Shown here piece after piece: positions 2,321-61,632 of a stretch of 64,000 nucleotides of DNA. Both the position numbers and the translations under genes were made by a program. The notes under the pieces are model-generated. The model was given only the letters and a program-made list of their open reading frames with translations, was not told the DNA's origin and did no database searches. The DNA is from Ianthella basta (lineage: Eukaryota > Porifera > Demospongiae > Verongiida > Ianthellidae). Where the stretch lies: assembly GCA_964019415.1 (NCBI GenBank), contig OZ025868.1, positions 14,111,491-14,175,490 on the forward strand, in the 5' to 3' direction. Numbering within the stretch: position 1 is the stretch's first letter; each line of letters begins with the position of its first letter.

Positions 2321-4417
2321 ATGATGTTGCTCCTTGTTCACACTACACTTGTAGTGTATGTAGCCTGTACCCAAGTGGTGGCTGTGGACTCAGGTTAGTA
2401 GTTAGCACGGGCTCTCTTTATATACTAGCTAGCTAGTTAACGTCTAAGCCTACAAAAGCATCAGGATTTGTACTTGATACTTTATAACACTTGTAACTAA
2501 GTGTCTCTTTGTGTATTGAAACACTTTAGCTACTATTTCTTGGTAATATGAACTTTACAGTATGTTTGTCCATACTCAGTAACTCTAGCTCTATCAGGAG
2601 ATGCTGTACCAACAGATGCACCTGGTGAATACGTCGTACCAGAGAGGGGCAATGTTACATTCACTTGTAACAGTAGCTCTGTAGCTCCAACATGGAAAGT
2701 AGACTTGAAAACATTGGGTAGCACTGCAGACTTCAGTAACACCAAGTCACTACTGTCGGAGCTACAAAATGTGAGCTCATCAGATACTGGCTCATTTCCC
2801 AATCCAACAAGCTTCACTGTTCACAACATTCCAACAGAGAGCAATGGATCATATGTGGAATGTTCTGCCCAAGGCCGTGCCAATTCCATTGCAAGAATCT
2901 TTGTAGAAGGTGAGAACTTGTACCTAAAATTGTGTGATTGCAAATGGCTGTTTTGTGACTAATATTTTCTAAATAATTTTGCTGCCATGGCAATGCCAGA
3001 GACATTGCCGTATAATTCAGAATGTATCTGTGCAAATGTGAGAAGCTGCTAGTACATAACACAAGACCTGTACGTGTCTTCAGCTCATGAAATTCAGGAG
3101 AATGTGAATGAATTATATTATATAATTATAGTGGAATCCATGGATGCAGCTGCAGGATACATGTTGTAATTTAATTTTACTTAATTGCATGATAGTGTTA
3201 TCATAGTATGTTCTGGGTAATATTGCATTGGATACAGCTGGGGTAATCCCTTCACAAAGGCTGCACACATCAATTGCAGTTATTGTATACTAGTGCTTGA
3301 TGCTATTTTCTCATTTCTGTAGGCTCCCCAAATTGTCCCAGTATTCAGACTAGTTTTACTAAGGTGGATTCGTTGGCTGTTTCAATACATGAATTGCACA
3401 AGACATGGTTAACTGTGTGTTACAATGTTGAGGTTACTTCAACTAACATGACAATAGTCACGATGCACAATTCAACTATAACAAGTGATGGATTTCTTGA
3501 AGTAAAGTCACTTCAACCTGACACAGTCTACAACATCTCAGTCACTCCATGCAATATGGCAGGATGCAACAAGTCATGTGATTTGTATTCAGTGCAAAAA
3601 GCTGCAGTACCTACAGAAGGTGGTGAGTATGGCATGCACAGAGTTGTGATGGTAACCCTACATAGCATGATAATATAATATAGTGCATACCTACCCAAAA
3701 CAATGAGAACACCTCAGTTATATATCCTTCACCTGCATGCATGTATCTGTTATTGTTAGTGCTAGATCCTGGAGGTGTTGCTGTTGGGGATCCATTTGTT
3801 ACTATTGGACTACCCATTATTGCTGTGGCAGTACTAGCAATACTCACTGTGCTAGTATCAATACTATTGACATATTTCTACAGAAGGTTAGTTTTCATTC
3901 TAATTATTGCAGTTGAACACATGTTGGGCTTGAGGTACTTTCATATACTCACCCTCCTATTCACAAGTAATGGTGTATACCTCTTCTCATTCACTTTCAG
4001 GAGAAGATTGAGAGGGAAACAGAAGAAGGTGAGTAGCCTGGTTACATGTTTATGTAACCAGGCCGTTGCCATAACCGTTTACCCTGGTTAGGTAATCTGT
4101 GATACAGCACAGACCATACTGTAGTGCCTTGTGGAAATACATACATAATGTATAGTTCCCAAGACAGTGCATGTGGTGATTATATCATCTTCCATAAGTG
4201 ACTTTGATTAATTGGTAATTGAGGAGTAATGTCATGGGCAATGAAGCAAAGTTACTTTCAAACATTGGTTTACACACAGGGTGGAACAGAGCAAGGAGGT
4301 ATTGAAGACAAGAGTAGGAATACTACAGAATATGCTCAAATTGTTACTAACACAACTTCAGCCAAAGGGAACTCATTGCAAGGGCCAACTAAGACAGCTC
4401 ACACCAGTGCACCTTGA
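2321..4417 (+). CDS. Receptor copy 1: Ig-FN3 type I membrane protein with ITSM-type tail
   Basis: Six coding exons with consensus sites: 2321-2393 (signal peptide, MMLLLVHTT start), 2580-2909 (Ig), 3323-3622 (FN3-like), 3760-3886 (transmembrane), 4001-4028 (basic RRLRGKQKK), 4280-4417 (tail, TGA stop). Together they give 331 residues with no internal stop. The Ig exon shows FTC, a Trp about 10 residues later, and YVEC; the FN3-like exon has LQPDTVYNISVTP and four extra Cys. There are several N-glycosylation sequons. The tail holds TEYAQI, which fits TxYxx(V/I) (ITSM). Compared with copy 6, the tail stops early, before the MEYSTV and proline-rich part. Predicted role: cell-surface receptor signalling through a phosphotyrosine; the ligand is unknown. 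Exon borders are inferred from splice signals and from agreement among ten copies. Confidence 0.85.
4038..4063. repeat. 11-bp perfect inverted repeat
   Basis: cctggttacat and its exact reverse complement are separated by gttt, just 3' of the juxtamembrane exon of copy 1. It would form a small hairpin in the intron RNA. Absent at this position from the other copies. Confidence 0.7.
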
Positions 4418-59119: not shown

Positions 59120-61632
59120 ATGATGTTGCTCGTTGTTCACACTACACTTGTAGTGTATGTAGCCTGTTCTCAAGTGGTGGCTGTGGACTCAGGTTAGTAG
59201 TTAGTACAGGTTCACTTCATACTGCTAGCTATAGCTAATTAACGTCTAAGCCAACAAATGCATCAGAATTTGTTCGTGATACTTCATAAAAGTACTTTTT
59301 AACTAAGTGTCTCTTCATGACTGTGTATTAAATGTTCAAACACTTTAGCTACTGTTTATTGGTAATATAAAGTTTACTGTATATGTGTCCTTCCTCAGTC
59401 ACTCTAGCTCTATCTGGAGACGCTGTACCAACAGATACACCTAATGAATATGTCGTACCAGAGAGGGGCACTGTTACATTCACTTGTAACAGTAGTGATG
59501 TACCTCCAGGATGGAATGTAGACTTCAAAAAATTGGGTAGCAGTTCAGGTTTTGCTAGCACTGATACACTACTGTCAGGAATACTAGAAAATGTGAGCTC
59601 ATCAGATATTGGCTCTTTTCCCAACCCAACGAGCTTCACTGTTCACAACATTCCAACAGAGAGCAATGGATCATATGTGGAATGTTCTGCCCAAGGCCGT
59701 GTCAATTCCACTGCAATAATCTTTGTAGTAGGTGAGAACTTGTACCTATTTATTGTGTGCTTGCAAAAGGCTGTTTTGTGGCAGCATAACACTCTTTGCT
59801 GCCATGGCAACATGTCTGTATAATTCAGAATGTACATTATACGGATGTGCAAAGCCACTAATACGTGACACAAGACTTGTATCTTCAGCTCATGAAATCA
59901 AAGAGAACCTGAATGTATAGTGTGAATGCAGGATCCATTAGTAGGAGCAGGATATGCAGGATACATTAATTAATATAATTATCTGAATTGCATGATACCA
60001 TTATCTTAATAATTTATGTTCTGGGTATTGTATACAAAATTATAACTATGGAGCTGGGGGAATCACAAATTCACAAATACAGCTGGGGGAATTCCTTCAC
60101 AAAGGTTGCGCACGTCAATTGCAATTTTTGTATACTAGCGCTGGATGCTATTCATATCAGATTTGTTAGGCACACAACAGTGTAGCATTGTCAATAACTG
60201 ATCTTACATGTGGTGCTATTTTCTCTTCTCTGTAGGCTCCCCAAATTGTCCCATTATTCAGAATATATTCACTAGGGTGGATTCATTGGCTGTTTTAGTG
60301 AAGCAATCACACAAGACATGGTTAACTGTGTGTTACAATGTTGAGGTTGCTTCAACTAACATGTCAATAGTCACAATGCACAATTCAACAATAACAAGTA
60401 ATGGTTCAGTTGTAGTGGAGTCACTTCAGCCCGATACACTCTATAACATATCAGTCACTCCATGCAACATGGCCGGATGCAACAAGTCATGTGAAATACA
60501 TTCAGTGCAAACAGCTGCAGTACCTACAAGAGGTGGTGAGTATGGCATGCAAAATCACAAAATAATATCTAGCTGTAATGATAATCCATATAAATTATAT
60601 AATAATATATAGGGATGGATAATACATATAGTGTGATATATAGTGCATACCTACCCGTGACAATGAGAACTCCTCAGTTATCCTTCACTTGCATGTATCT
60701 GTACATGTTATTGTTAGTCCTAGATCCTGGAGGTGGTGCTGTTGGGGATCCACTTCTCACTATTGGACTGCCCATTATTGCTGTGGCAGTACTGGCAATA
60801 CTCACTGTGCTAGTAACAACAATACTGTTGGCACTTTTCTACAGGTTAGCTTTCATTATAATTATTGCTATTGTATGCACGTTGTGCTTGGGTACTTTCA
60901 TATACTAATAATTTGTTCTCCCATTCACAAGTAATCGTTAATACCAATTCACATTCACTTTCAGGAGGAGATCAAGAGCCAAACAGAAGAAGGTGAGTAG
61001 CCTGATTGCATAGCCACCATTTTAAACCTCCTCTTCCATCACCCTGTGCACTGGGGATACTATACCATGCATATGTATCGATGCTGACAATGTCCAATAA
61101 TATATATATATAATTATACATATAATTATATATAATATACTTTGTGTGTGTGTGTTTGTGTGTGTGTGTGTGTGTGTGTGTGTGTACAAGCGCATGTCAT
61201 TGAATTGTTGTTACTAAAAGTAATTATGGTAATAGCAATTACCGCGCAAACAGCTTAATGGAAATATGCATTATGTTGTTTCAAGATGGAGCAGCAACCC
61301 CATGCATGGTGTATAATACTAGTTTAGTTCCGTGAAGTGCTCTCAAATTGTAGACAAAATATTAAATATGCCACCTTGATGATTATGCTATATATATATA
61401 TAATATCTTTTTCTACAATTGATACATTTGTGCATAGAATGGAAGCAGAGAGCGACATTATGAAGACATTGTGGCAGTTGACTCAGCCTATGATGATATA
61501 CTGGCCATGTCTGCTACTCTTTGTGACCCTGCTCCTGCTGTAAGTCAGCTTCCAAAATCACTTTGTAATATCACCGAGGGATATAAATTGATACACAGTG
61601 CTCCATCTATCACTGGATGTAAGGAGAAGTAG
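59120..61632 (+). CDS. Receptor copy 10: ITAM-tailed Ig-FN3 membrane receptor, open
   Basis: Exons: 59120-59192 (signal), 59399-59731 (Ig, one codon longer), 60236-60535 (FN3-like), 60718-60844 (membrane), 60965-60992, 61438-61539 or, by reading through the donor, 61438-61632 (TAG). The read-through form is 351 residues with no break. The tail exon encodes HYEDIVAVDSAYDDIL, a perfect ITAM (YxxI, six residues, YxxI), tyrosine codons at 61459 and 61489. Reading on adds GYKLI. The Ig domain differs from its duplicate copy 7 in the segment around DVPPGWNVDF and KKLGSSSGFASTD. Later tail exons, if any, would lie beyond a LINE that begins at 62023. The best candidate for a working ITAM receptor in this window. 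Confidence 0.82.
61143..61186. repeat. Short (TG)n tract ahead of the copy 10 ITAM exon
   Basis: About 44 bp of TG with one TT interruption, preceded by an AT-rich palindromic stretch (61098-61140). Confidence 0.93.

What the first reader, a model, noticed from the sequence alone, without database searches (positions are those of the whole stretch)
2321..61632. Tandem array of ten Ig-FN3 type I receptors with two tail classes
Ten same-strand copies share one exon/phase plan but end in either an ITSM-type tail (copies 1, 6, 8) or an ITAM/ITIM/NPxY-type tail (2, 4, 5, 7, 10), with near-identical ectodomains. This is the layout of paired activating and inhibitory receptors in vertebrate KIR/LILR-type clusters and resembles the Ig-type allorecognition complexes of cnidarians. 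In an early-branching animal it would be a strong candidate self/non-self recognition locus. The architecture is seen in the sequence; the immune role is inference.
Basis: partly seen in the sequence, partly recalled or inferred. Interest (0 to 1): 0.93.

Follow-up and report, generated by a model that had tools for sequence, protein, structure and literature searches.

The report
Giant animal array of paired receptors
An animal chromosome carries a half-megabase run of about fifty related cell-surface receptor genes, many of them broken, whose inner ends bear either "go" or "stop" signalling motifs, a layout like known self/non-self recognition loci; what they recognise is untested.

Summary
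The observation largely holds and understates the locus. Ten same-strand copies have signal-peptide, Ig, FN3 and TM exons. Five of ten are open to the juxtamembrane exon; three (2, 6, 10) reach a tail stop. They belong to an array of at least 49 Ig and 51 FN3 exons over about 535 kb. Fold models support Ig and FN3 domains.

Tails are modular. One exon matches the extended ITAM consensus (10 of 32 sequences). Others bear an SxYxxI ITIM, NPxY, or ITSM-like motifs. Phases mostly interchange; one array gene is open in both an ITAM and an ITIM/NPxY form. Tail type follows ectodomain lineage only partly. One SHP-type gene was confirmed, a second indicated; no Syk-type kinase was found, by an incomplete search.

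Corrections: Ig exons of window copies are 74-87% identical to copy 6, tails are not two exclusive classes, half the window copies are broken. Exon-wide dN/dS is near 0.5. Best reading: paired activating/inhibitory recognition receptors. Expression, polymorphism, allorecognition and species (perhaps a sponge) are untested.

The parts
2321..4447 (+). Copy 1: SP 2321-2393, Ig 2580-2909, FN3 3323-3622, TM 3760-3886, JM 4001-4028 (open); tail A match from 4283 with TEYAQIV and then an in-frame stop
11164..14719 (+). Copy 2, complete open gene, 396 or 394 aa by juxtamembrane donor: SP 11164-11236, Ig 11444-11773, FN3 12232-12531, TM 12663-12792, JM 12922-12961 (or -12955), ITIM exon 13937-14101 (SAYDDIL, EGYEVMH), NPxY exon 14567-14719 (NPAYQPLE)
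18063..21585 (+). Copy 3: SP 18063-18135, Ig 18351-18680, FN3 20577-20870, TM 20987-21116, JM 21238-21265 open; NPxY exon frameshifted; FN3 from another lineage than its Ig
22810..25725 (+). Copy 4: frame broken in Ig and FN3; NPxY exon 25576-25725
27838..32202 (+). Copy 5: Ig frame broken; ITAM exon 30212-30406 (ERRYEDIVAVDSAYDDI); ITIM exon from 31416; NPxY exon from 32053
34087..36650 (+). Copy 6, open gene of 417 aa: SP 34087-34159, Ig 34363-34692, FN3 35335-35634, TM 35763-35892, JM from 36012, tail A exon 36265-36650 (TEYAEI, MEYSTV, TATYLPI, AGYATV). Its usual JM donor (GTGAGT) reads CTGAGT, so the open frame needs the next donor
40863..45085 (+). Copy 7: FN3 frame broken; two-tyrosine exon from 43048 (YEDN, not ITAM); ITIM exon from 43978; NPxY exon from 44927
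47054..49351 (+). Copy 8: Ig frame broken; tail A match 48975-49351 with one frame break
53194..54790 (+). Copy 9: stop in FN3, TM exon cut short; no A or B tail exon found
59120..61632 (+). Copy 10, open gene of 351 aa with ITAM tail: SP 59120-59192, Ig 59399-59731, FN3 60236-60535, TM 60718-60844, JM 60965-60992, ITAM exon 61438-61632 (ERHYEDIVAVDSAYDDI, stop TAG). An ITIM exon and an NPxY exon follow just beyond the window (genome 14175907 and 14176839)

Best explanation
This is a stretch of a roughly 535-kb, fast-evolving array of paired activating/inhibitory type I receptors. A membrane-distal Ig domain plus an FN3 stalk is exposed outside the cell and, by inference, binds a ligand on touching cells. 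The tail exon sets the signal. The ITAM exon (YEDI-x6-YDDI) would recruit tandem-SH2 or Src-type kinases and activate. The ITIM exon (SAYDDI) and the ITSM-like tail A (TEYAEI and others) would recruit SHP-type phosphatases and inhibit. The NPxY exon would bind PTB adaptors or the uptake machinery. Tandem duplication, loss and recombination re-pair ectodomains with tails. In some genes an ITAM exon and an ITIM exon stand in series in compatible phase, so splicing could choose the sign of the signal. The likely use is recognition of self versus non-self on contact (own species or microbes). Shown: gene anatomy, fold models, motifs, tail/ectodomain discordance, an SHP-type gene. Inferred: splicing, phosphorylation, sign of signal, ligand and immune role.
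Against: No transcripts. After the two-tyrosine exon a polyadenylation hexamer was found within 700 bases in 0 of 3 window copies (5, 7, 10) and in 0 of 352 bases after the array gene's; the window average is 0.49 per 700, so the test is weak, but last-exon use is unsupported. Exon-wide dN/dS is 0.53 (Ig) and 0.44 (FN3), no exon-wide positive selection. Not all tyrosine motifs are conserved: the TEYAEI windows of tail A score 0.80-0.92 and EGYEVM 0.60-0.64; the tyrosine of TATYLPI is missing in several tail A exons (TATLPP). Six of 16 two-tyrosine exons miss the ITAM consensus. Tail type is partly tied to ectodomain lineage: 4 changes against shuffle means of 6.3 and 6.4. No Syk/ZAP70-type gene was found; the kinase search scored 130 of 2397 candidates. 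Five of ten window copies are broken. The consensus of 20 TM exons has no basic residue in the span, unlike adaptor-using activating KIRs (the KIR feature is recalled).
Confidence: 0.55

Rival explanations
1. Adhesion or tissue-organising Ig-FN3 molecules: a lineage-specific expansion that mediates homotypic cell contact in the body, with tyrosine tails that tune adhesion, and no self/non-self role.
For: The top folds include adhesion Ig domains (SynCAM, nectin-like, IgLON, Dpr/DIP), tied with antigen-receptor V domains. Purifying selection overall. Passages of a review describe sponge IgSF mainly as adhesion molecules (PMC11999971).
Against: A 50-copy array with half the window copies broken and tails exchanged between ectodomains is unlike stable adhesion genes; paired ITAM/ITIM tails on one ectodomain family have no evident need in plain adhesion (inference).
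Confidence: 0.22
2. Receptors for microbes or symbionts: paired activating/inhibitory sensors for bacterial ligands, diversified by host-microbe conflict and not by allorecognition.
For: Fits array turnover and a variable Ig stretch; passages of one paper report a broad immune-receptor repertoire in a sponge transcriptome (PMC12723187).
Against: No ligand data; not separable from allorecognition by sequence.
Confidence: 0.3
3. The tyrosine motifs are sorting or uptake signals (NPxY, YxxPhi) or general SH2 docking sites, and the ITAM spacing is incidental.
For: NPxY is a classic PTB/endocytic motif (recalled); a relative of the NPxY exon occurs in a second receptor family on the same chromosome. 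Six of 16 two-tyrosine exons miss the ITAM consensus.
Against: Ten of 16 two-tyrosine exons keep the whole consensus, and shuffles give it in 0.065%.
Confidence: 0.15
4. A mostly decayed array: neutral tandem duplication with few or no working genes.
For: Five of ten window copies have broken frames.
Against: Three window copies and the array gene at 13864437 are open end to end; exon dN/dS of 0.44-0.78 shows constraint, weakest in TM.
Confidence: 0.08

Closest known systems
Hydractinia allorecognition complex (Alr1, Alr2 and Alr-like genes)
   Same: Clustered single-pass IgSF receptor genes with many likely pseudogenes in one large region (passages of PMC11067881); ITAM/ITIM on candidate genes (passage of PMC12065747).
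   Different: Here one Ig plus one FN3 domain, and Ig exons of window copies 74-87% identical to copy 6 where Alr proteins are said to have low identity; polymorphism and allorecognition unknown. Homology to Alr was not tested.
Botryllus fester co-receptors (FcoR)
   Same: Large multigene family of type I Ig receptors with ITIM and hemITAM tails; some loci swap the two by alternative splicing (section 11 of PMC12065747).
   Different: FcoRs have V-Ig, sushi and two C2 Ig domains and pair with fester genes; here Ig-FN3 and a full ITAM, and tail choice is only predicted.
Vertebrate KIR/LILR-type paired receptor clusters
   Same: Tandem array, related ectodomains with activating or inhibitory ends, exon shuffling (KIR/LILR details recalled).
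   Different: ITAM lies in the receptor itself, not in an adaptor; no basic residue in the TM consensus; FN3 stalk.
Sponge aggregation factors and SRCR receptors
   Same: Candidate recognition or immune genes of sponges (reference seen, title and abstract start).
   Different: Not Ig-FN3 receptors with ITAM/ITIM tails (recalled).

Membership tests
Immunoglobulin superfamily type I receptor | Ig fold in the ectodomain, signal peptide, one membrane span | tested here: met
   Ig exon model and fold matches; SP and TM exons in frame by sequence. Pfam scores were below cut-off (ig 14.6, fn3 16.7 bits).
ITAM-bearing receptor | [DE]xxYxx[LI]x6-8Yxx[LI] in the cytoplasmic tail (consensus recalled) | tested here: met
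   10 of 32 B6-type sequences; in window copies 5 and 10; copy 10 and array gene 13864437 open to it.
ITIM-bearing receptor | [SIVLT]xYxx[IVL] in the tail (consensus recalled) | tested here: met
   SAYDDI in copy 2, TEYAEI and TATYLPI in copy 6; MEYSTV and AGYATV miss the -2 position.
Paired activating/inhibitory receptors (KIR/LILR kind) | Clustered copies with related ectodomains and opposite tail types | tested here: met
Paired activating/inhibitory receptors (KIR/LILR kind) | Opposite signals shown in cells | not testable with these tools
   needs experiment
KIR proper | Activating members use a charged TM residue and DAP12-type adaptor (recalled) | tested here: not met
   no basic residue in the span of the 20-exon TM consensus; ITAM is in the receptor tail
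Hydractinia Alr family | Sequence homology to Alr1/Alr2 | not tested
   no Alr sequence was at hand; Huene et al. 2022 not held
Allorecognition locus | High polymorphism within a species and linkage to fusion/rejection | tested here: inconclusive
   A second array on a 1,389,587-base contig of unnamed origin: its P0014 and P0061 are at best 82% and 88% identical to anything found in this genome; it may be another haplotype or another species. Linkage not tested.
ITAM/ITIM signalling kit | SHP-type phosphatase and Syk/ZAP70-type kinase in the genome | tested here: inconclusive
   SHP-type exon order found; PLC-gamma-like, SOCS-like, Grb2-like and Fes-like genes too (names are my reading of domains); Syk not found but search incomplete.

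The most novel reading that the evidence does not exclude
An Ig-type allorecognition complex in a sponge-grade animal in which single genes carry, in series and in one splice phase, an ITAM exon and an ITIM/NPxY exon behind one variable Ig-FN3 ectodomain, so that splicing flips a receptor of fixed specificity between activation and inhibition. ITAM/ITIM paired recognition would then predate or have arisen apart from cnidarian, tunicate and vertebrate systems.
Probability: 0.25. Interest if true: 0.95.

Novelty: new variant of a known kind. Interest (0 to 1): 0.84.

Why it matters
Allorecognition by grafting is classic in simple animals, yet outside cnidarians and tunicates the receptors are unclear (partly recalled). 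This locus gives a concrete, mappable candidate with a built-in signalling hypothesis: Ig-FN3 ectodomains joined to ITAM or ITIM exons, in a genome that also has an SHP-type phosphatase. It makes the question testable by long-read RNA, haplotype sequencing and phosphopeptide binding, and it bears on whether ITAM/ITIM paired recognition is ancient or was invented several times.

Tried and rejected
I first judged that the B tail had no ITAM (note), because I had read only the one-tyrosine exon; reading the upstream frame of the second exon type showed the ITAM, and I withdrew that judgement.

Exon-wide positive selection: not found. The variable Ig stretch reaches pN/pS about 1, not clearly above.

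Exclusive tail classes: rejected. Of 55 units, 47 have at least two ectodomain/TM exon kinds: 9 with A only, 23 with B only, 10 with both, 5 with neither. I copied the hit lists by hand and grouped them by order; the list was cut, so these are lower bounds. In 4 of the 10 units with both, the B exon lies over 9 kb away and may belong to a unit that was missed. Of the other six, the A exon is split over frames in the two that I read first (14021243, 14080780), a third (14096753) has stops, and two (14262011, 14332338) are open to a stop six residues before the usual end; their B exons were not shown to be usable. A gene with intact A and B tails is therefore not shown. The gene with ITAM and ITIM exons is.

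The clade tests used groups chosen after seeing the trees, and put the two A+B rows and three unlabelled rows with the 'others'; their p-values are optimistic.

A third repeated segment (RKQVQDVQV..) after copies 1, 6, 8, 9 has stops in several copies; I do not count it as a tail.

Syk: the C14 stretch L087 is PLC-gamma-like, L088 SOCS-like, C15 L090 Grb2-like, C11 L092 Fes-like with one SH2, C8 L093 SH3-SH2-kinase; C17 L094 showed SH2 only.

Papers 10.1073/pnas.2207374119 and PMC5400394 are not held.

P0007 (712-base contig) looks by eye like copy 7 in its first half and 14058157 in its second; an assembly chimera is equally possible.
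Full report
Where it lies. The window is C1:14111491-14175490 of a 209.09-Mb genome in 96 contigs. SH2, tyrosine-phosphatase, Fes-like, SOCS-like and PLC-gamma-like genes (names are my reading of domains) and the Ig/FN3 content make it an animal by inference; a sponge is a guess from genome size and chromosome-like contigs, and was not tested.

The observation. Ten copies on the + strand each have a signal-peptide exon starting ATGATGTTGCTC at 2321, 11164, 18063, 22810, 27838, 34087, 40863, 47054, 53194 and 59120, and Ig, FN3 and TM exons. 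Projection of copy 6 (SP 73, Ig 330, FN3 300, TM 130, JM 31 bases) recovers the plan with small length differences, phases 1-1-1-2-0 in open copies and AG/GT borders with exceptions (copy 5 TM acceptor, copy 6 JM donor). Frames from start codon to JM are open in copies 1, 2, 6, 10 and 3, and broken in 4, 5, 7, 8, 9. Copies 2 (396 or 394 aa), 6 (417 aa) and 10 (351 aa) are open to a tail stop codon. Copy 6 needs a shifted donor, because the usual GTGAGT reads CTGAGT, so its tail is less sure.

The array. Ectodomain-plus-TM search of the genome gave 168 exon matches; nearly all of those listed lie at C1:13.80-14.34 Mb on the + strand. Copied by hand and grouped, they make 49 Ig, 51 FN3 and 40 TM exons, with 20 tail-A, 40 B6 and 37 B7 (NPxY) exons, in 55 units; these are lower bounds. 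Listed exceptions to the strand rule inside the array are an Ig fragment at 14180876 and a tail-A exon at 14270606. Weaker relatives lie at C1:15.33-15.42 Mb and C9:5.19-5.23 Mb, and one Ig-FN3 pair at C1:1.71 Mb.

Tails. Tail A (copies 1, 6, 8) holds TEYAEI, MEYSTV, TATYLPI and AGYATV in copy 6; TEYAEI and TATYLPI fit TxYxx[VI], the other two miss the -2 position, and the tyrosine of TATYLPI is missing in several array copies. Tail B has three exon kinds: a two-tyrosine exon, a one-tyrosine exon and an NPxY exon. Thirty-two B6-type sequences from the window and fetched loci were read; 16 have two tyrosines, and 10 match [DE]xxYxx[LI]x6-8Yxx[LI], 8 of them with an in-frame ATAG acceptor. In the window these are copies 5 and 10. 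Shuffles of one such exon give the pattern in 0.065%. The six that miss it change a +3 residue (YEDT, YDDV, YKDN three times, YEDN). The one-tyrosine form SAYDDI is an ITIM by pattern; EGYEVM/L after it is near a hemITAM or YxxM motif (names recalled). Acceptors are phase 0 in 6 of 11 A exons (CAG|GGT or CAG|GAT), in the B6 rows (ATAG|AAT) and B7 rows (CAG|AGT or CAG|AAT) listed; the JM donor and the donor of the one-tyrosine exon are phase 0 in most copies listed. The tails are thus largely interchangeable by splicing. The array gene at 13864437 is open in both an ITAM form (351 aa) and an ITIM/NPxY form (402 aa) with one ectodomain; there the ITIM reads TAYNDI. Against last-exon use of the ITAM exon: a polyadenylation hexamer within 700 bases of the stop in 0 of 3 window copies with a two-tyrosine exon, where 0.49 per 700 is the window average, so the test is weak.

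Evolution. Nei-Gojobori ratios among exons that were complete and stop-free: Ig 0.53 (22 copies), FN3 0.44 (21), TM 0.78 (20), tail A 0.51 (6), B6 0.62 (17), B7 0.71 (14) (partial or interrupted matches were dropped). Within exons the windows at SAYDDIL (0.17), MEYSTVQ (0.26) and NPAYQPL (0.31) change least, but those at TEYAEI (0.80-0.92) and EGYEVM (0.60-0.64) do not. The Ig varies most at alignment codons 31-72 (0.87-1.12, with 0.58 at 43-54), against 0.12-0.68 in the other windows. Trees of 24 copies: the 8 tail-A-only rows are not a clade on Ig (p-AU 0.0001) or FN3 (0.027); copy 5 with an ITAM tail is sister to a tail-A gene in both; copy 3 joins an Ig near copy 2 to an FN3 near 13925474 (holding copy 3 with copy 2 on FN3 is rejected at 1.7e-6; holding it with 13925474 on Ig at 0.018); copy 10's FN3 groups with copy 7 and 14070368, its Ig does not (0.020). 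Groups were chosen after seeing the trees, so these p-values are optimistic. Tail type still tracks ectodomain lineage more than most shuffles do: 4 changes on each tree, reached by 18 and 8 of 300 shuffles.

Elsewhere. Profile searches found 53 Ig-exon and 228 FN3-exon relatives (120 listed) in unnamed public contigs. Contigs of 1,214,948 and 275,991 bases are the same array: 18 of their proteins match stretches that I held at about 99-100%; others match less, their counterparts not having been fetched. A 1,389,587-base contig carries another array, of which the two proteins tested, P0014 and P0061, are at best 82% and 88% identical to anything found in this genome. The database is clustered at 90%, so listed representatives are the divergent ones by construction. 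It may be another haplotype or another species. Many other relatives are 39-55% identical to copy 6, and P0004 by eye keeps FN3, a TM stretch and a basic JM.

Signalling kit. C16:693.8-713.4 kb has SH2, SH2, phosphatase exons in that order twice by hit positions; one of the two was fetched and confirmed. No Syk/ZAP70 was found among the stretches examined. Passages of PMC5978004 link Syk/Zap70 homologues to animals with CARD-CC/Bcl10 and name Shark as another ITAM kinase, so a missing Syk would not by itself refute activation.

Comparison. [quoted passage not shown] passages and section 11 of PMC12065747 describe FcoRs with ITIM or hemITAM tails, swapped by splicing at some loci. One passage of the Ephydatia genome paper notes tandem gene clusters; its main text has no hit for immunoglobulin or allorecognition (PMC7385117). 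The present array works like Alr and FcoR on paper; membership by descent was not tested. Searches for sponge Ig receptors with such tails listed no paper that I recognised as describing this array; I saw listings and the passages named here.

Verdict. Real, larger than reported, and best read as paired activating/inhibitory recognition receptors; the immune role is inference.

Noticed in passing
genome C1:0.997-1.824 Mb (L045 1004500-1011000, L046 1173000-1177500): A second receptor cluster, by eye with FN3-like exons and a TM, whose tail exon (STTEPQYEE..ENPAYQ) is a relative of the NPxY exon here: 22 of 62 matches.
   Followed up: partly
61942-63762: A 606-codon open frame that looks like a LINE endonuclease/reverse transcriptase (label recalled, not searched) sits between copy 10's ITAM exon and the ITIM/NPxY exons that follow.
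   Followed up: no
genome C6:5.95-7.09 Mb and C12:5.43-5.91 Mb: Dense runs of tyrosine-phosphatase exons, with FN3 matches at C6:5.97-6.12 Mb: perhaps a large array of receptor-type phosphatases.
   Followed up: no
genome C16:693000-713400: Two SH2-SH2-phosphatase (SHP-type) genes appear to stand in tandem; one confirmed.
   Followed up: partly
TM exons, e.g. 35763-35892: TM exons have about half the synonymous divergence of Ig and FN3 exons (dS 0.13 against 0.24 and 0.29), as if homogenised by gene conversion; extra TM/JM pieces lie at 37849-38048 and 56263-56456.
   Followed up: no
5141-5344, 37363-39244, 50080-50293, 56742-57575: A repeated segment (RKQVQDVQVI-ATNDPNM) follows copies 1, 6, 8, 9; whole and open in copy 1, with stops in several others; role unclear.
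   Followed up: no
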